This document shows positions 2-63,173 of a DNA stretch of 63,173 nt, in pieces. Each line of letters starts with the position of its first letter. Position 1 is the first letter of the stretch. The position numbers and the translations under genes are program-made. This stretch comes from an uncultured Prevotellaceae bacterium. GTDB lineage: Bacteria > Bacteroidota > Bacteroidia > Bacteroidales > Bacteroidaceae. The notes beneath the pieces were generated by a model, which was not told where the DNA came from, ran no database searches, and was given only the letters and a program-made list of their open reading frames with translations. The stretch covers positions 1-63,173 of the forward strand of contig OMZE01000020.1 in NCBI GenBank assembly GCA_900315455.1, read 5' to 3'.

Positions 2-274
2 TTCCACTATTTGATTGACTTCCCCTGGGATGGGTCTACGCTACGATACAAGCGGGTGATGAACTTCACTCGTGACGGACAGCTAATTTACCAGTGGGAC
101 AGGGATGCCTTCCTGGAAGAAAAACTTAGTATTGAGACGGCAGAAAATGAGGCTTCCATAGAAGATGGGATGGTCTATACCTGCGACGGAAGACGTGTGG
201 CTCAAGGAGCAGACATTCATCTATTACCCAAAGGCATCTATGTGAAAAGAGGCAAGCTGTTTGTCGTGAAATGA
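2..274 (+). CDS. C-terminal end of a secreted protein with T9SS-like sorting tail (partial)
   Basis: The reading frame is open from the window edge, so this is the 3' end of a gene that starts upstream; the TTG at position 11 is not a credible start. The last ~35 residues read DGMVYTCDGRRVAQG…LPKGIYVKRGKLFVVK. This matches the C-terminal pattern (short D/M-x-GRRV, then LPKG(I/V)YI, then a lysine-rich end) seen again in the C10 protease at 16.8-19.9 kb. In Bacteroidota such tails are usually type IX secretion sorting signals or diverged forms of them. The preceding part (FPWDGSTLRYKRVMNF) has no fold I recognise. Exported enzyme or adhesin is an inference; the catalytic domain lies outside the window. 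Confidence 0.6.
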   Translation, partial: FHYLIDFPWDGSTLRYKRVMNFTRDGQLIYQWDRDAFLEEKLSIETAENEASIEDGMVYTCDGRRVAQGADIHLLPKGIYVKRGKLFVVK

Positions 275-664: not shown

Positions 665-1654
665 ATGACAGTTAAAAGTCAGCTTGAAGTGTATAGAATT
701 ATCCTTCCTTCAAAAACTACATATGGAGAGTTAATACAAGGGAAATTCTATGATGAGAATTCGCCCAAACAGACAGATATTATTAAATTTAAGAAATTAT
801 ACAAATCATTTCTCGAAAAACTTGTCAAGAATAATGTTTGGGTATATAAGGAGAAAAAGAAAGGGTTGACAGTTTTCCTCGAAAAAGGGGAACAAATAAA
901 TCAAATAATAACGTCACATCCGAATCAGTACATTATTGAGGGTTATTTGGACGGGGGTAGGTATGATATGATAAGAAAGATGGCAGCAATGTCAGACACA
1001 ACCCAGCGAAAGACAATCTCTTCGACGGATATTGTAGCTGCAAGGTATTATTTCCATCTTTACATTCCATTCAATAAAAGTATAGGTTTGTTATTTTTGG
1101 AGAAAAAAAATGACGACCAAATCAGAGATGCTGTAAAAGCCTATTTTAGTGAGTTGTTTAGATGGAAAAACAAATGTCAGATCCAAGCATACTTCCCCAA
1201 AAAGATGATAGAGAAATTTAGGAAAAGCGCTGTTGTCGACACATTATATAGTATTGATTACATAAGCCCAGAAGTTGGACTTACTGAATCTGAAGAGTTG
1301 GAAGCTCAAACTTACGAAGTTCTCGTTCAGATTAAAAAGATTGGAAATGCTGTACCATACGATAATGTAGATCAATTGGTAGAGGCTACTAAAGACTTAA
1401 ATGTTTCCTTTTTAGGCCAAACTCTCAATTTTTTTAAATTCAAAACTCGAAAGGGTATAATGAAGAATACTGAGACAAAAAAACAATCTACATTTGATTT
1501 TGAGAAGGGAGTTTTTATTCATCCTTACATAGAACTCGATGAAGAATTGTTAGAAAAGGGTATATTGAACAAAGAGAAAATGTTCAAATTCTGCACATCT
1601 TTGATGAAAGAAATCTATAACGATGTCTATAATTTAAATATAAATGAAAAGTAA
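665..1654 (+). CDS. Unrecognised soluble 329-aa protein, first gene of a two-gene module
   Basis: I do not recognise this protein. It has no signal peptide and no membrane segment. The N-terminal ~100 residues are mixed alpha/beta and lysine-rich (KEKKKGLTVFLEKGEQ). A hydrophobic core follows at about residues 135-155 (AARYYFHLYIPFNKSIGLLF), and the C-terminal third is charged, with an acidic helix (IELDEELLEKGILNKEKM). No Walker, HNH, PD-(D/E)XK, Toll/interleukin-1 receptor or protease motif is evident. Its stop overlaps the start of the next gene, a membrane protein, by 11 bp, so the two are probably translationally coupled. Base composition is visibly more AT-rich than the housekeeping genes downstream, which fits horizontal transfer. 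A cytoplasmic sensor or effector partner of the membrane protein, as in many phage-defence pairs, is inference only. Confidence 0.55.
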   Translation: MTVKSQLEVYRIILPSKTTYGELIQGKFYDENSPKQTDIIKFKKLYKSFLEKLVKNNVWVYKEKKKGLTVFLEKGEQINQIITSHPNQYIIEGYLDGGRYDMIRKMAAMSDTTQRKTISSTDIVAARYYFHLYIPFNKSIGLLFLEKKNDDQIRDAVKAYFSELFRWKNKCQIQAYFPKKMIEKFRKSAVVDTLYSIDYISPEVGLTESEELEAQTYEVLVQIKKIGNAVPYDNVDQLVEATKDLNVSFLGQTLNFFKFKTRKGIMKNTETKKQSTFDFEKGVFIHPYIELDEELLEKGILNKEKMFKFCTSLMKEIYNDVYNLNINEK

Positions 1655-2408
1655 CTATCTTCTTTATTATATCATCCATCTTATAAATAATGGACACAAG
1701 TGGCAATATCAAAATTTGAATGGATCAGGCAAACCTCCTGTTCTTTGGCTTTCGTCACTCCAAATAATTGCTTTAATAATTGCCATAACTTTTTTGTTCG
1801 TCCAACCAGATGGTTTGCTTCATGAAAATATTATAGATTATGTTTTGAGTTCGTTATCTATCTTAACTGGTATATATTTAAGCTTAATAGTATTCATTTA
1901 TGATAGATACAAAGTAATAAACTTTAATGAAATGAGTGATACTAAAAAGATAAGAACATGGAACTTTTACAGTCAACTGTTCTCTCTTACATCATACTCA
2001 ATAATATTGGCAATTCTTGTAATTGTAATATTGATAAGTGCTTTATTATTTGGTGTAAGGACAAACATTTTCAATTATGAGTTTACAAGTCATATTACTT
2101 TTGTTAGTTTTGTTCTGTTCTTAAAAATCTCACTAATTGTTTTAATCAGGGTGGCGTTTATTTATTTCCTTTTTGATTTTTTTATATTGTGTCTTTACAT
2201 AGTCTCTGGCATTTTCCAATTCGTTAGTAGCGACATGAAAGATAATAGACCTAATAAAATGATACCAAATACTAAATCAGCATTTATAATACTATGGAGT
2301 GAAAATAAAGTGGCTTTTATTACTTCATGGTTCTTTATAATAATCATTGGTTGTTTAGTTGCGGGATATCTGTTTCTTTCATTATTCGACTATTGTAAAC
2401 TTGAGTAA
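1644..2408 (+). CDS. Unrecognised multi-span membrane protein, second gene of the module
   Basis: The 254-residue protein has five or six hydrophobic spans: roughly residues 35-53 (LQIIALIIAITFLFV), 66-86, 116-138 (SIILAILVIVILISALLFG), 148-192 (one or two spans) and 226-248. An amphipathic N-terminal stretch of about 34 residues precedes the first span. There is no signal peptidase site and no transporter or enzyme signature. The start overlaps the end of the 329-aa gene by 11 bp, so the two should be co-expressed. The pairing of an unknown cytosolic protein with a small membrane protein resembles the architecture of abortive-infection and other defence modules, but no homology could be established by eye. 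Strongly AT-rich, like its partner. Confidence 0.55.
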   Translation: MKSNYLLYYIIHLINNGHKWQYQNLNGSGKPPVLWLSSLQIIALIIAITFLFVQPDGLLHENIIDYVLSSLSILTGIYLSLIVFIYDRYKVINFNEMSDTKKIRTWNFYSQLFSLTSYSIILAILVIVILISALLFGVRTNIFNYEFTSHITFVSFVLFLKISLIVLIRVAFIYFLFDFFILCLYIVSGIFQFVSSDMKDNRPNKMIPNTKSAFIILWSENKVAFITSWFFIIIIGCLVAGYLFLSLFDYCKLE

Positions 2409-2631: not shown

Positions 2632-3008
2632 ATGGAAATTAAAGAAAGACTTAGGTTTTTTTTCCAAAAAAGAGGATATGATTTAAAAAGAATCAAAGGG
2701 TTTAATGATGATGTAGAAGTCATTATTAAAGCACTTAATAAACAAGATGCTCTTTGTGCCCTTGACTTATATTCTGATTTAAATATTCCTATATTGGGGG
2801 GGATGTACTGTTCCTGAATGATAACGGATTGATTGAATATACTTATGACAGTTGGTATAGTATTCCTATAGAAAGTGAGTCCTACAGTACATTTCTTTTT
2901 AGAAGTATTGAAGTATCTCGCAATTATATAATTAATTACAATAATCCTTTTATAAAGGCATCTTCTATCTTATTCGACATTATACCTGATTATAAAGATA
3001 TACATTAA
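2632..3008 (+). pseudogene. Imm40-like immunity protein, frameshifted at a G7 tract
   Basis: The first frame gives MEIKERLRFFFQKRGYDLKR and continues to LYSDLNIPILGG, then runs out of frame after a run of seven G around 2795-2802 and stops at 2815-2817. Shifting by one base restores a continuous protein: DVLFLNDNGLIEYTYDSWYS, then a C-terminal part with SRNYIINYNNPF, ending at the TAA at 3006-3008. The joined product is about 125 residues. The pattern (helical N-terminus, PILGGDV, TYDxWY, then a YI-x-x-Y helix) matches my recollection of the Imm40 family of polymorphic-toxin immunity proteins. Eight G would make it intact, so this could be a pseudogene, a phase-variable tract, a -1 slippage site or a sequencing error. 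It lies directly before a second small immunity-like gene. Confidence 0.6.
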
Positions 3009-57203: not shown

Positions 57204-59030
57204 CTATTGGGTGAATTTGGCTATGACGGCAAGGAATAGTTCGGCATACCGGTCGCGCTTGTAGGTGCCGATGCCTGGGATGGCACCAAACTCTTCGACG
57301 GTCATTGGCTTGCGGGCAGAGATGAGGCTGAGCACCTTGTCGTTCATCACGACAAAAGCAGGGACACTCATCTCGTTGGCAATCTGACGGCGGAGTTTAC
57401 GCAACTCTTCATAGAGTTCATCGTCTTTTTTGTCATTTGTGCCGAACACAGGAATCCGTAGTTGCATTTGCCTGCTCTTCGGCTTGTCCACAGTTTTCTG
57501 ACGTGTGTTCTCCACCAATTCCACTTTTCGCTTTCCACGGAGTACCTCCCAGCCAAAGGGTGTTATCTTTACGGCGTTGTAGTTGTCGTATTCGATTTCT
57601 ATAAAGCCCATTTGGAGGAGTTGAAGGAAGAAGTCACGCCATTGGCGGTCGTCGAATTCGGCTCCCTTGCCGAAAGTGGGGAGATGGTCGTAACCGTTGC
57701 GCCGAATGGTTTCTGTCACTTTCCCCCTTAAGATGTCGATGAGTGTGGTCGACGAGCGGCTTTCCCCTGTCCGGGCTGCCGCACTTAGGGCTTTTTGTGC
57801 CACTATCGTACCATCAAATGACTTAGGGGGATTGTCGCATACGTCACAGTTGTGACAGTTCTTGTCATACGGCTCATTGAAATAGTTGAGCAGGATGCGT
57901 CGCCGGCATATCCTTGATTCAGCATATTGGCGCATGAGCCGGAGTTTCTCTGTGTTGGTTCGGCGTGTGTCTTCATCCGTGCTTTTTTGTATGAATTGCG
58001 ACAGTTGAACGATGTCTTGCAGCGAATAGAAGAGCACGGTGTCGGCGTGCAGGCCATCGCGCCCGGCTCGGCCGATCTCTTGATAGAAACCTTCGATACT
58101 CTTTGGGGTGTTGTAGTGTATAACCCATCTGATGTTGCTCTTGTCGATGCCCATCCCAAATGCTATGGTGGCACACACCACCTCCAGGTTGTCGCACCTG
58201 AAAGCCTCCTGCACTTTGTCGCGTTCTTCCGTCGACATGCCTGCATGATAGGGTGCCGCGTTGATGTTGAGTTTACGGAGTTTCTTCGACACTTCTTCCG
58301 TGGTTTTCCTGCTTAGACAATAGATGATGCCCGACTCATGTTGGTGCTGGCGGATGAAGTTGGCGATATAGGCATCTTTGTCGCGGGTGGCATAACCATG
58401 CATCACTTTCAAGGTGAGGTTGGGACGGTCGAACGAACTGACAAATACGCCATCGTTATCGGTGACACGCAGGTGAAGTTGCTTGATGATGTCATGTCGG
58501 GTCACCTTGTCGGCGGTGGCAGTGAGTGCCATGATGGGGATATCAGGAAAATACTCATGTATCACACCCAACTGGGCATATTCGGGTCTGAAATCATGTC
58601 CCCAGTGGCTGATGCAGTGGGCTTCGTCGATGGCGAAAAGCGATACTTTCATCTGGCTATGGAGAAATGGAATCTCCTGCATGAGGCGCTCGGGTGATAT
58701 GTAAAGTATTTTCATTTCGCCGTTCGTGCATTTCCTCCTTACCAATAGTTGCCTCTCATAGGATGTACTGCTGTTAAGTGTCGCCGAAGGGATGTCATTT
58801 GCCTGCAATGACTCCACTTGATCTTTCATCAGACTGATGAGTGGCGATATCACAACGGCTGTCCCCGACATGGCCAAAGCAGGAATTTGGAAGCAAATGC
58901 TCTTGCCTCCACCGGTAGGCATCAATACCAAACTGTCGTGTCCTTGTATGGTTCTTTCGATGATCTCACGTTGCAGTGGTCGGAAAGAATCATATCCAAA
59001 ATATTGTCTTAGTATTTGACTAATATCCAT
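57204..59030 (-). CDS. recQ: ATP-dependent DNA helicase RecQ
   Basis: 608 residues from the ATG of MDISQILRQYFGYDSF; an earlier Met would precede the promoter's start site (-7 element at 59073-59080). Walker A MPTGGGKS is at 37-44, DEAH motif AIDEAHCISHWGHDFR, and motif VI QEIGRAGRDG. The zinc site (CRRRILLNYFNE, CHNCDVC), winged-helix region and a C-terminal HRDC domain (ELYEELRKLRRQIANEMSVP) are all present. It unwinds recombination intermediates with 3'-5' polarity. Divergent from the AraC-type regulator gene. Confidence 0.95.
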   Translation of the reverse strand: MDISQILRQYFGYDSFRPLQREIIERTIQGHDSLVLMPTGGGKSICFQIPALAMSGTAVVISPLISLMKDQVESLQANDIPSATLNSSTSYERQLLVRRKCTNGEMKILYISPERLMQEIPFLHSQMKVSLFAIDEAHCISHWGHDFRPEYAQLGVIHEYFPDIPIMALTATADKVTRHDIIKQLHLRVTDNDGVFVSSFDRPNLTLKVMHGYATRDKDAYIANFIRQHQHESGIIYCLSRKTTEEVSKKLRKLNINAAPYHAGMSTEERDKVQEAFRCDNLEVVCATIAFGMGIDKSNIRWVIHYNTPKSIEGFYQEIGRAGRDGLHADTVLFYSLQDIVQLSQFIQKSTDEDTRRTNTEKLRLMRQYAESRICRRRILLNYFNEPYDKNCHNCDVCDNPPKSFDGTIVAQKALSAAARTGESRSSTTLIDILRGKVTETIRRNGYDHLPTFGKGAEFDDRQWRDFFLQLLQMGFIEIEYDNYNAVKITPFGWEVLRGKRKVELVENTRQKTVDKPKSRQMQLRIPVFGTNDKKDDELYEELRKLRRQIANEMSVPAFVVMNDKVLSLISARKPMTVEEFGAIPGIGTYKRDRYAELFLAVIAKFTQ

Positions 59031-59072
59031 TATTTGTAGAGTTGTATGCTCGTTTGTGGTGAGATATTGTTG

Positions 59073-59104
59073 CAAAGATATATTTTTTTCGTTAAAAAAT
59101 CATG
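59073..59104 (-). promoter_or_regulatory. Promoter for recQ
   Basis: The minus strand reads CATG (59101-59104), 20 bases, then TATCTTTG (59073-59080). The -7 is exact; the -33 is poor. It supports the start of recQ at 59030. Confidence 0.5.
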
Positions 59105-59109
59105 AAAAA

Positions 59110-59141
59110 TTTGGAATTATGACAATAAAAAAGTAAATTTG
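59110..59141 (+). promoter_or_regulatory. Promoter for the AraC-type/M49/AlkD-like operon
   Basis: TTTG (59110-59113), 20 bases, TAAATTTG (59134-59141): both boxes exact. Back-to-back with the recQ promoter. Confidence 0.65.
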
Positions 59142-59192
59142 CGAAAAATGAATGTAAAACTATAGTTGTTGAATATTAAACAAGTGGTAGAA

Positions 59193-59675
59193 ATGGCAAA
59201 ATACAACATTACAGAAAAAAAGGAAAAGGAGGCGGCATACCGAAGTCTGGTAAGCCCGAGGCTCATGGATGAGTTGAAGGAGAAAATTCTGGATATTATT
59301 CTCATTCAAAAAAAATACAAGGACAAGGATTATTCTGCAAAAAAACTTGCGGAAGATTTGGGCACAAACACGAGATATATCTCTGCTGTGGTCAATGTGA
59401 GATTTCATGTTAATTACACATCCTTTGTAAACAAATTTCGAATTGACGAAGCCATGACTCTATTGGTTGACAAACGCTATCAAGACCTTAATATGGAGGA
59501 AATCAGCAGTATGGTCGGCTTCTCAAATCGACAGTCTTTCTATGCGTCTTTCTACAAAATCAACGGTCTGACACCACGCGAGTACAAGATCAGACACCTG
59601 GCTCAACACCCTTCGTTGAAGGAAGTAAAGCGTGTGAGCAAGAGAGGTAGGAAGCCTTCTGGGAAAAATGTATAA
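59193..59675 (+). CDS. AraC-type HTH regulator, small
   Basis: 160 residues from ATG (MAKYNITEKKEKE); a TTG nine codons earlier is less likely. The AraC HTH covers about 50-140: DKDYSAKKLAEDLGTNTRYI is the first helix-turn-helix, FVNKFRIDEAMTLL the linker and NMEEISSMVGFSNRQSFYASF the second. No sensor domain is present, only an ~40-residue N-terminal helix and a basic tail. It probably regulates its own operon, in which the M49 peptidase gene overlaps by 8 bp. Confidence 0.87.
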   Translation: MAKYNITEKKEKEAAYRSLVSPRLMDELKEKILDIILIQKKYKDKDYSAKKLAEDLGTNTRYISAVVNVRFHVNYTSFVNKFRIDEAMTLLVDKRYQDLNMEEISSMVGFSNRQSFYASFYKINGLTPREYKIRHLAQHPSLKEVKRVSKRGRKPSGKNV

Positions 59676-61626
59676 AAAAATGGTTGAGGATTTTTGTTAT
59701 TCTGGAGAACGGTTTGCCGATCTTCAGATTCTTAGATACCGAATCGATGGTTTTGAAAAACTGACGCTACGACAGAAATTATACGTTTATTATCTTTCAG
59801 AAGCCACACTATGGGGCCGAGACATTACGTTCGACCAAATGGGAGCATACAACCTCCGTATCAGAAAACTGATGGAGGTTGTATATTCTTTGGTGAGAGA
59901 TGATGACACCAAGGAGTCGAAAGCGGTGGAAAACTATCTGAAACGTCTTTGGTTTTCTAATGGCATCTACCATCATTATAGTGGAGATAAATTCGTACCC
60001 GGTTTTTCAAGTGACTATCTGAAGGATGTCATTACCCGATTGAATCCTTCGGTTCTTCCCTTGCAAGAGAACCAGACAAAGGAGGATTTGATAAAGGAAT
60101 TGTTTCCCATCATCTTCGACAAAAACGTGTGGCCTAAGAGGGTGAACAAGGCCGATGGTGAGGATCTTGTCGTCAGTTCGGCTTGTCATTTCTATCAAGG
60201 TGTCACACAGGAAGAGGCAGAGCATTTCTACAATTCCATGAAGAATCCCGACGACAAGCAACCGCCTTCTTATGGGCTTAATAGTCTTTTGTCAAAAGAA
60301 AAGGGACAAATCAAGGAAATAGTATGGAAAAGCGATGGCATGTATGGCGCCGCGATCCGAAAGATTGTGGAATGGCTGGAGAAAGCAGCAGAGGTGGCTG
60401 AGAACGAGGCACAGCGCCAATCTATCCAGTTGTTGGTGAGATACTACAAGACGGGCAACTTACGTGACTTCGACCGTTATTCCATCCATTGGGTGGGAAG
60501 CCATGAGGGCGACATCGATTTCATCAATGGCTTTATCGAGGTCTACGGCGACCCTCTTGGCCTGAAGGCCACGTGGGAGGGCATTGTGGAGTTCAAAGAC
60601 CATGTCGCCACGCGACGTACTCGGATGATCAGCGACAATGCACAATGGTTTGAGGACCATTCTCCTGTTGACGACCGTTTCAAGAAGAAGGAGGTGAAGG
60701 GTGTCGTTGCCAATGTGGTCTGTGCGGCCATGCTCGGAGGTGAGGAATATCCCTCATCGGCCATTGGCATCAATCTCCCCAATGCCGACTGGATAAGGGA
60801 AGAGTATGGCAGCAAGAGTGTCACTATAGGCAACCTCACCGATGCCTACAACAAAGCGGCTCACGGCAATGGGTTTAAGGAGGAGTTTGTTGTCGACCAA
60901 CCAACTCTCGCGCTCATCGAACAATATGGTGACCTTTGCGACGACCTCCATACCGACTTGCATGAATGTCTGGGCCATGGTAGCGGGCAACTGCTGCCCG
61001 GTACCAGTCCCGATGCGCTGAAAGCCTATGGCAGTACGATAGAAGAGGCTCGTGCCGACTTGTTCGGGCTTTATTACATTGCCGACGAAAAGTTGGTGGA
61101 GATGGGACTGCTGCCTGATGCTGAAGCATATAAGTCGCAATACTATACTTACTTGATGAACGGCCTGCTGACTCAACTCACGAGAATCAAGCCCGGTCGA
61201 CAGATTGAGGAAGCGCACATGAGAAACAGGGCGCTCATCGCCAGATGGGTGTACGACCATGCTGAAGGTGCCATTTCTCTTGTGCTGAAAGAGGGGAAGA
61301 CTTACCTTGTCGTCAACGATTACGACAGCCTCCGCAAACTGTTTGCCACCTTGCTCGCCGAAGTGCAGAGAATCAAGAGCGAGGGTGACTATGAAGCAGC
61401 ACGCCGATTAGTGGAGAAATATGGCGTGAAGGTAAATCCTGTGTTGCATGAGGAAATCCTTCGGCGCTACGAAGCGCTCGACTTGGCTCCCTATAAGGGA
61501 TTCCTCAACCCACGCCTCTCCTTGGTCTACTCTTCAGAGGGTGAAGTCGTTGACGTGGATGTGGATTATTCTGAAAGTTATACCGAGCAGATGCAGAGAT
61601 ACTCGCGCGATTATGGGGCACTCTGA
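59668..61626 (+). CDS. M49 family dipeptidyl peptidase (DPP III-like)
   Basis: 652 residues, cytosolic. The zinc motif H432-E433-C-L-G-H437 in LHECLGHGSGQLLPG and the third ligand region EEARADLFGLYY (E460 area) match the M49 hallmark (HEXXGH and EExRAE/D). As remembered, the Bacteroides DPP III also uses HECLGH. It cleaves dipeptides from the N-terminus of short peptides. No signal peptide. It overlaps the AraC-type gene by 8 bp and is 24 bp before the AlkD-like gene. Confidence 0.87.
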   Translation: MYKKMVEDFCYSGERFADLQILRYRIDGFEKLTLRQKLYVYYLSEATLWGRDITFDQMGAYNLRIRKLMEVVYSLVRDDDTKESKAVENYLKRLWFSNGIYHHYSGDKFVPGFSSDYLKDVITRLNPSVLPLQENQTKEDLIKELFPIIFDKNVWPKRVNKADGEDLVVSSACHFYQGVTQEEAEHFYNSMKNPDDKQPPSYGLNSLLSKEKGQIKEIVWKSDGMYGAAIRKIVEWLEKAAEVAENEAQRQSIQLLVRYYKTGNLRDFDRYSIHWVGSHEGDIDFINGFIEVYGDPLGLKATWEGIVEFKDHVATRRTRMISDNAQWFEDHSPVDDRFKKKEVKGVVANVVCAAMLGGEEYPSSAIGINLPNADWIREEYGSKSVTIGNLTDAYNKAAHGNGFKEEFVVDQPTLALIEQYGDLCDDLHTDLHECLGHGSGQLLPGTSPDALKAYGSTIEEARADLFGLYYIADEKLVEMGLLPDAEAYKSQYYTYLMNGLLTQLTRIKPGRQIEEAHMRNRALIARWVYDHAEGAISLVLKEGKTYLVVNDYDSLRKLFATLLAEVQRIKSEGDYEAARRLVEKYGVKVNPVLHEEILRRYEALDLAPYKGFLNPRLSLVYSSEGEVVDVDVDYSESYTEQMQRYSRDYGAL

Positions 61627-62389: not shown

Positions 62390-63173
62390 TTAGTCAAAAA
62401 ACGAGCGTTCCGGTGGTATGGATTTTTCTTTCTCAAGTATGGTCAGCCAGTCCTTTTCCGGCTCCTCGAAGAACGTGTAGAAGTTGACATAGTACATGAG
62501 CATGATTCTGAACATTGTGGCCATCCCCGAGAAGCTCCAAGTCCTTTTTATTCTCTTTTGCATGACCATCAGCAGCAGGTTGGCGATGAGTGTCACCCAA
62601 ATCTGTAACTTGATGGCATTGGCACTCTCTCCATAGAAGTAGCGCAGAGGGAAGTTTTGCTTTAACTGTTTGAAGATCAGCTCAATTTCCCAACGCTTTC
62701 TAAAAATCTCCACGATTTCCTCCGCCTCCATCTCCATGTCGTTGGTCAGCAGTGACACAAGCTTTGCCCTTGTCTTCTTGATGTCGACGTATGTGATGAC
62801 CCTTGCATGGTGCACAATGTCCTCGCCGTCCTTGGTGCGCTTTGTGAATGTCACATGCTGCACCCTGTACTCCATCAGCCCTTTTGGAGACATGTACATC
62901 GTGTCACTCTCTACCGTGTAGACGAGGTTCTTCTTCATCTTGGTGACATATGTAACCTCGCGTCTGGTCAGCTCCTCGAATTTTGCGTAGTCGATGTATG
63001 CCCTGTCCATGGCCAGCAGGTCTCCCGCGGCATAGTTGGAAGGCTTGAGCATGAAGCTGTCGTTGGTGGCGGCGGAGGTGAACCTGATGTCGGACGGCAC
63101 GCCCTCGTTGGCGTGTATGTTCGCATGGACCTTTATGCCGCCCTTCTTCTTTCCTGTCTTCGGATGGCGGCCC
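62390..63173 (-). CDS. IS4-family DDE transposase (partial, 5' end missing)
   Basis: The frame is open to the window end. It begins in view with KTGKKKGGIKVHANI, then EGVPSDIRFTSAATNDSFML and LAMDRAYIDYAKF (a DDE Asp region). The C-terminal part has IVEIFRKRWEIELIFKQLKQ, the YREK-like IS4 motif in which the catalytic Glu sits. The end is IPPERSFFD. About 260 residues are visible; a full IS4 protein is ~380-440. It appears intact as far as seen. Confidence 0.88.
   Translation of the reverse strand, partial: GRHPKTGKKKGGIKVHANIHANEGVPSDIRFTSAATNDSFMLKPSNYAAGDLLAMDRAYIDYAKFEELTRREVTYVTKMKKNLVYTVESDTMYMSPKGLMEYRVQHVTFTKRTKDGEDIVHHARVITYVDIKKTRAKLVSLLTNDMEMEAEEIVEIFRKRWEIELIFKQLKQNFPLRYFYGESANAIKLQIWVTLIANLLLMVMQKRIKRTWSFSGMATMFRIMLMYYVNFYTFFEEPEKDWLTILEKEKSIPPERSFFD

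What the first reader, a model, noticed from the sequence alone, without database searches (positions are those of the whole stretch)
665..2408. Unrecognised two-gene module: soluble 329-aa protein overlapping a multi-span membrane protein
Two AT-rich genes overlap by 11 bp, resemble no family I know, and stand in an island next to immunity-like genes and broken fragments. Cytosolic protein plus small membrane partner is a recurrent plan for phage-defence or abortive-infection systems. No TAnnTTTG promoter is visible upstream, unlike most genes in the window. Novel defence or toxin system is inference.
Basis: partly seen in the sequence, partly recalled or inferred. Interest (0 to 1): 0.8.

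Follow-up and report, generated by a model that had tools for sequence, protein, structure and literature searches.

The report
RexAB-like phage-exclusion gene pair in Bacteroidota
Two overlapping bacterial genes, one for a soluble protein whose predicted shape recalls DNA-holding proteins and one for a small membrane protein, belong to a family that travels as a pair and most resembles the old lambda-phage RexAB exclusion system, so they are probably an undescribed branch of that kind of anti-phage growth-arrest switch.

Summary
The two genes are real. P1 (665-1654, 329 aa, soluble) and P2 (1644-2408, 254 aa, membrane) overlap by 11 bp in 30-31% GC DNA. Neither has a credible hit in Pfam, NCBIfam, PADLOC or PHROGs. 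Relatives are sparse but keep the pair: 17 of 17 loci carry a P2 coding sequence directly after P1, and in a 393-genome sample of the order each profile hit the same 7 genomes. In 8 of 16 loci a third gene of NA37/YejK nucleoid-protein type follows. Seven of 17 loci have restriction-modification genes beside them. The predicted P1 fold is closest to CENP-N and Iml3, a fold group to which lambda RexA belongs (PMC11077077). P1 and P2 also give weak, colinear profile matches to actinophage RexA-like and RexB-like proteins. My reading: a RexAB-type exclusion module, P1 being a DNA-binding sensor that activates the membrane protein P2. It does not match the curated RexA/RexB families and is not Kiwa by profile. 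Defence function and mechanism are inference. New variant of a known kind; no description was found in the papers searched.

The parts
665..1654 (+). P1: soluble 329-aa protein, RexA-like in plan and perhaps in fold; proposed DNA-binding sensor/activator
665..1189 (+). P1 residues 1-175: N-terminal, strand-rich part; G93, G98, P135 and G141, among the best-conserved residues of the family, lie here
   Evidence: secondary structure of the model, conserved columns; domain limits are my reading
1199..1564 (+). P1 residues 179-300: inserted alpha/beta region, proposed counterpart of the RexA dimerization domain
   Evidence: secondary structure of the model; RexA topology from PMC11077077 section 18; inference
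1571..1630 (+). P1 residues 303-322: C-terminal helix that would complete a split globular domain
   Evidence: model; the best structural alignments run from residue 2-4 to 320-325; inference
1644..2408 (+). P2: membrane protein, 254 aa, RexB-like in plan; proposed channel/effector
   Evidence: ORF; P2-family coding sequence directly after P1 in 17 of 17 loci; profile search
1644..1654 (+). 11-bp overlap of P1 and P2
   Evidence: also 11 bp in L002, L023 and L024; 4-29 bp overlap in 12 of 16 loci
1740..1796 (+). P2 hydrophobic segment 1 (residues 33-51)
   Evidence: Kyte-Doolittle scan
1842..1898 (+). P2 hydrophobic segment 2 (residues 67-85), within the stretch that aligns with actinophage RexB-like proteins
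2001..2057 (+). P2 hydrophobic segment 3 (residues 120-138)
2133..2189 (+). P2 hydrophobic segment 4 (residues 164-182)
2331..2387 (+). P2 extra C-terminal hydrophobic segment (residues 230-248), seen in 3 of the 13 P2 proteins scanned (window, L002, L035)

Best explanation
P1-P2 is a RexAB-type phage-exclusion (abortive-infection) module. P1 would be a dimeric, DNA-binding protein of the RdgC/Iml3/RexA fold that senses an infection-related DNA or nucleoprotein state. When triggered it would activate the membrane protein P2, which then depolarises or permeabilises the inner membrane and stops growth before phage are made. In about half of the relatives a third gene, an NA37/YejK nucleoid-associated protein, probably helps with sensing. 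Shown here: the two genes, the pairing, correlated sequence divergence, four or five hydrophobic segments in P2, restriction-modification neighbours in 7 of 17 loci, and a predicted P1 fold closest to CENP-N/Iml3. Inferred: DNA binding, dimerization, P1-P2 contact, the membrane effect, and protection from phage.
Confidence: 0.55

Rival explanations
1. Butters-type roles: the cytosolic P1 is itself the anti-phage effector, and the membrane protein P2 holds it inactive until infection.
For: Mycobacteriophage Butters gp30/gp31 has the same plan with these reversed roles (discussion of PMC12894663); its genes have the same order and a similar overlap, 8 bp.
Against: In lambda, CarolAnn, Sbash and P. 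putida the membrane protein is taken as the effector. In L016 the P2 gene is interrupted while P1 is open, which is odd if P2 restrains a harmful P1, though such a locus may simply be decaying.
Confidence: 0.15
2. Kiwa-like action: P2 is a membrane anchor or sensor at the injection site, and P1 (with NA37 where present) binds incoming phage DNA and blocks its use without cutting it.
For: Kiwa also pairs an inner-membrane protein with a DNA binder that does not cleave (PMC12904381, passages). The parts here look non-catalytic, and NA37 is a nucleoid-protein family.
Against: No convincing profile similarity of P1 or NA37 to KwaB, or of P2 to KwaA (in one search 2 and 5 of 60 shuffles were as high as P1-KwaB and P2-KwaA). 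In the 10 Kiwa loci read, the membrane gene precedes the soluble one, the reverse of P1-P2.
Confidence: 0.15
3. Not phage defence: a module against plasmids or other mobile DNA, or a stress or maintenance function of mobile islands.
For: L035 lies in an element with mobilisation-type genes by eye and L038 next to an integrase-like gene by eye; in the window the nearest named gene is DUF6984.
Against: Restriction-modification genes directly before P1 on the same strand in five loci; resemblance to phage-exclusion systems.
Confidence: 0.15

Closest known systems
Lambda RexAB (Pfam RexA PF15969, RexB PF15968)
   Same: Soluble protein first, four-span membrane protein second, same strand; RexA belongs to the RdgC/IML3/CHL4 fold group (PMC11077077), and the P1 model matches CENP-N/Iml3 chains best
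   Different: No detectable sequence or profile similarity; P1 is 329 aa against 279 and P2 254 against 144; no CI repressor or phage genes recognised beside the window pair; NA37 third gene in half of the relatives; found in Bacteroidota genomes
Actinophage Rex-like pairs: CarolAnn gp44/gp43, Butters gp30/gp31, Toast gp42/gp41 (and Sbash gp30/gp31, known here from papers only)
   Same: Order, similar sizes, and overlap or close spacing; weak colinear profile matches of both proteins above shuffled and reversed controls
   Different: tblastn of P1 found no phage protein; encoded by temperate phages; no neighbour annotated as nucleoid-associated in the stretches read (not searched further)
Pseudomonas putida RexABpp (PP_5643-5644; PMC12894663)
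   Same: Two genes, DNA-binding RexA-like protein plus four-span effector; recognised by HHpred and fold, not by BLAST
   Different: HHpred linked it to RexA at 98% probability; I could not run HHpred and saw no such strong link; it lies in a prophage; its sequence was not compared here
Kiwa (KwaA/KwaB)
   Same: Inner-membrane protein with a non-cleaving DNA-binding partner
   Different: No convincing profile similarity; reversed gene order
YejK-domain defence system of DefensePredictor (PMC13092281)
   Same: A YejK nucleoid-associated domain was newly validated in defence in E. coli
   Different: The text read (section 5, figure legends, passages) does not say which genes accompany it; supplements could not be opened, so a link to the NA37 of this family is open

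Membership tests
RexAB exclusion system | Match to the curated RexA/RexB models (PF15969/PF15968, PDLC02339/PDLC02340) | tested here: not met
   Window pair scanned at E up to 10 against Pfam and PADLOC, no Rex hit; lambda RexA/RexB match these models as positive control
RexAB exclusion system | Soluble partner with the RexA/RdgC/IML3 fold | tested here: inconclusive
RexAB exclusion system | Membrane partner with four predicted spans, encoded directly downstream | tested here: met
   Directly downstream in 17 of 17 loci. Of 13 P2 proteins scanned 10 gave four segments and 3 gave five; in L021 and L002 the first segment fell below threshold and the fourth region was called twice. P2 itself has a fifth
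RexAB exclusion system | Profile similarity to known RexA-like and RexB-like proteins | tested here: inconclusive
   Actinophage type: above shuffles and reversed controls, colinear, but probability under 3% and one sub-alignment fails; lambda type: none
RexAB exclusion system | Non-specific DNA binding, dimer formation, RexA-RexB contact | not testable with these tools
   needs purified proteins
RexAB exclusion system | Phage exclusion with a membrane effect | not testable with these tools
   needs phage assays
RexAB exclusion system | Location in a phage genome next to a CI-like repressor (usual) | tested here: inconclusive
   No repressor or phage genes recognised near the window pair by eye, but the contig ends 665 bp upstream; among relatives only L038 has integrase-like and LexA-like genes nearby, by eye
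Kiwa | KwaB (PF16162) and KwaA relatives | tested here: not met
   No PF16162 hit at E up to 10 nor in the window genome; hhalign probability 0.2-0.3%
NA37/YejK (third gene of relatives) | PF04245 match above its cut-off | tested here: met
   6 of 8 third genes (L020, L022, L023, L024, L034, L036; 2.1e-22 to 2.6e-38); L019 and L021 gave no Pfam hit but align with L022 at 27% and 45% identity; none in the window genome

The most novel reading that the evidence does not exclude
A diverse, undescribed chromosomal branch of the RexAB plan exists in Bacteroidota, in which the RexA-like protein and the membrane effector work with a nucleoid-associated protein (NA37/YejK) as a third component and are wired into restriction-modification operons. 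The trigger would be a change in nucleoid or DNA state (for example DNA cut or left unmodified by the neighbouring restriction system), read on DNA and passed to a membrane channel. The two-gene form in the window would be a reduced version.
Probability: 0.25. Interest if true: 0.78.

Novelty: new variant of a known kind. Interest (0 to 1): 0.62.

Why it matters
How RexAB senses phage has stayed open for 70 years, and PMC12894663 (January 2026) counts only five RexAB-like systems, all from temperate phages or prophages. A diverse branch in Bacteroidota, with a recurring nucleoid-protein partner and restriction-modification neighbours, would show that the plan is a general bacterial defence and would give a concrete clue (NA37, restriction-modification) to what is sensed. 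It would also extend the RdgC/RexA/CENP-N fold group to a new bacterial immune family.

Tried and rejected
Relatives of P1 in viral contigs, phages and plasmids: none in the searches run. Three family-level hits (L006-L008) were dropped: they match about 120 residues inside 750-774-aa frames that read as AAA+/Clp-like by eye. The phylum hit G334 was dropped: about 50 residues with three stops. Kiwa was tested and rejected by profile. DUF4747, named in PMC6426606 and PMC6426596 (passages) for RexA-like proteins, gave one hit below its cut-off, with stops, in 148 genomes, so no profile was built. Weak Pfam hits such as Ig_Dlec1_1 (E 0.0026, below its cut-off) were taken as chance. PDB sequence searches gave nothing credible for P1, P2 or NA37. 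The P2 model (mean pLDDT 66.7) gave only helical-bundle matches of middling Z. NA37 on plasmids: 4 records; the two read stand among metabolic genes without the pair. One paper search had terms too broad to help. Not listed among the 50 structural rows shown for P1: lambda RexA 8twq, although its sequence is in the PDB copy. PADLOC on the nearest genes at L019, L022, L037 and L038 (one gene each): no hit.

Full report
1. The observation. P1 (665-1654) and P2 (1644-2408) are intact, same-strand ORFs of 329 and 254 codons with an 11-bp overlap, in DNA of 30-31% GC while most of the window lies between 43 and 55%. The window is a whole 63,173-bp contig of a 4.76-Mb, 93-contig assembly with 8% estimated contamination, and P1 begins 665 bp from its end, so the upstream side is mostly unseen. 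No library matched either protein credibly: Pfam and NCBIfam, PADLOC, PHROGs, PDB sequences.

2. Relatives. With P1 alone, 8 of 301 family genomes (own genome included) gave a match, of which I dropped 3 as chance matches inside long AAA+/Clp-like frames. A scan of genome contigs with a five-row alignment found 9 loci, among them Xylanibacter muris, Pedobacter foliorum, Dyadobacter diqingensis and several Bacteroidales or Bacteroidia MAGs. With an eleven-row alignment, 3 of 395 phylum genomes matched, own included (one dropped: about 50 residues with stops), and 7 of 393 order genomes, own included. Removing duplicates (L003=L016, L004=L018, L005=L019, judged by equal contig length; L002 lies in L009) leaves 17 loci with the window. 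L023 and L024 are near-identical in P1 (333 of 344 residues). The distribution is sparse and patchy, as for many defence genes.

3. The pair is the unit. All 17 loci carry a P2-family coding sequence directly after P1: intact in 14, cut by the contig end in L017, interrupted in L016 (P1 open there), and broken together with P1 in L018. P1 and P2 overlap by 4-29 bp in 12 of 16 measured loci and are 2-11 bp apart in the other 4. A P2 profile searched in a 393-genome sample of the order hit the same 7 genomes as the P1 profile and no other. Two limits: the P2 profile contained rows from these genomes or their relatives, so its hits there are by construction, and only the best 5 (P1) or 7 (P2) first-look candidates of each genome were scored. 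Identity distances of P1 and P2 correlate at r = 0.84 over 13 loci (0 of 9999 permutations as high).

4. A third gene. In 8 of 16 loci whose downstream side is readable (L019, L020, L021, L022, L023, L024, L034, L036), a protein of about 340 aa follows P2. Six of the 8 match NA37/YejK (PF04245): L022 1.9e-24 and L023 2.2e-22, L020 3.5e-24, L024 2.1e-22, L034 1.1e-24 and L036 2.6e-38. L019 and L021 gave no Pfam hit but align with L022 at 27% and 45% identity. The window genome has no NA37 match.

5. Neighbourhood. I chose 20 neighbouring proteins at 12 loci, ten by eye and ten mostly as nearest ORFs, for PADLOC at 1e-5. Sixteen of 20 matched: restriction-modification models at L016 (2), L020 (2), L021 (2, one only over part of its length), L023 (2), L024 (1), L034 (2) and L035 (1); candidate PDC-S05 models, for RhuM-like proteins by my reading, at L024 and L035; bSEFIR at L033; and a weak PDC-S59 at L009 (1.1e-8). 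No hit: the one gene tested at each of L019, L022, L037 and L038. Loci L017, L018 and L036 were not tested. In the window, two neighbouring ORFs gave nothing, and ten long window proteins farther off, chosen by hand, gave 0 of 10. This is not an unbiased enrichment test. At L016, L023, L024, L034 and L035 the methylase, specificity or restriction gene ends 2-8 bp before P1 on the same strand.

7. Sequence test of the Rex reading. Lambda RexA and RexB match their curated models; P1 and P2 do not. I then built small profiles of actinophage RexA-like and RexB-like proteins (Toast, Butters, CarolAnn and viral-contig relatives). P1 against RexA-like: score 18.4, positions 129-226 with 131-240; shuffled maximum 16.3 (0 of 40 as high), reversed 12.4. 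P2 against RexB-like: score 22.3, positions 46-105 with 43-100; shuffled maximum 13.6 (0 of 40), reversed 14.8. A first run with other alignments gave 21.2 and 20.9, 0 of 60 for both; a smaller P1 alignment (A3) scored 21.8 against a maximum of 21.3 over only 24 columns, a smaller P2 alignment (A4) 14.2 against 14.0, and the seven-row P1 sub-alignment (A9) failed (5 of 60 as high). hhalign probabilities remain below 3%. Against lambda RexA and RexB, 31 and 16 of 60 shuffles were as high; the actinophage proteins against the lambda ones also fail (47 and 13 of 60), so the method is insensitive here. P1 against KwaB and P2 against KwaA gave 2 and 5 of 60.

8. Mechanism. The discussion of PMC12894663 counts five RexAB-like systems by January 2026, takes the membrane protein as the effector in lambda, CarolAnn, Sbash and P. 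putida, and reports reversed roles in Butters. In the 16-row P1 alignment the invariant or nearly invariant columns are I91, G93, G98, P135, G141, I153, F259 and P287, with no polar residue, so P1 is more likely a binding protein than an enzyme. I therefore favour P1 as DNA-binding sensor and activator and P2 as membrane effector. Protein pI was not informative: P1 relatives 6.1-9.2, actinophage RexA-like 5.4-6.7. NA37 as an added DNA-state component is a guess. A YejK domain has been validated in E. coli defence (PMC13092281: section 5, figure legends and passages), but which genes surround it could not be read.

9. Novelty. Paper searches for RexAB with Bacteroid, Kiwa/DUF4868/nucleoid-associated terms, KwaA/KwaB, NdpA with phage, YejK/DUF4747/defense island, Iml3 with RdgC and Sbash/CarolAnn/Butters/RexA listed no paper that I recognised as describing this pair; apart from the passages named above I saw listings only. 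I rate it a new variant of a known kind: RexAB in plan and perhaps in fold, but failing the curated family models, with new hosts, new context and a new third partner.

Noticed in passing
   Followed up: partly
window 2632-3008: Two short ORFs in a row (2632-2817, 2829-3008) that look like pieces of one decayed gene; no family match.
   Followed up: no
window 11-274 and 329-568: Short ORFs at the contig end without family match.
   Followed up: no
window 62390-63172: Incomplete transposase-like ORF, by eye, at the right contig end.
   Followed up: no
window 59001-60000: Another AT-rich stretch (37% GC), not examined.
   Followed up: no
L016 8897-9679: In Xylanibacter muris the P2 gene is interrupted while P1 and the neighbouring restriction-modification genes are open; the matching genome G033 also shows a stop inside P2.
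   Followed up: partly
L033 10172-11392: A bSEFIR defence-type protein (3.1e-70) begins about 600 bp after P2.
   Followed up: partly
L035 4857-12527: Element with mobilisation-like proteins, an adenine methylase, a type II restriction enzyme (6.9e-123), the P1-P2 pair and a PDC-S05 gene in one direction (partly by eye).
   Followed up: partly
L024 10529-11515 and L035 11547-12527: The next gene after the P1 module is in both a protein matching the PADLOC candidate family PDC-S05, suggesting a recurrent neighbour.
   Followed up: partly
L037 5367-5648: A short ORF of repeated RAQxSL units upstream of the pair in G744, probably a repeat array rather than a gene.
   Followed up: no
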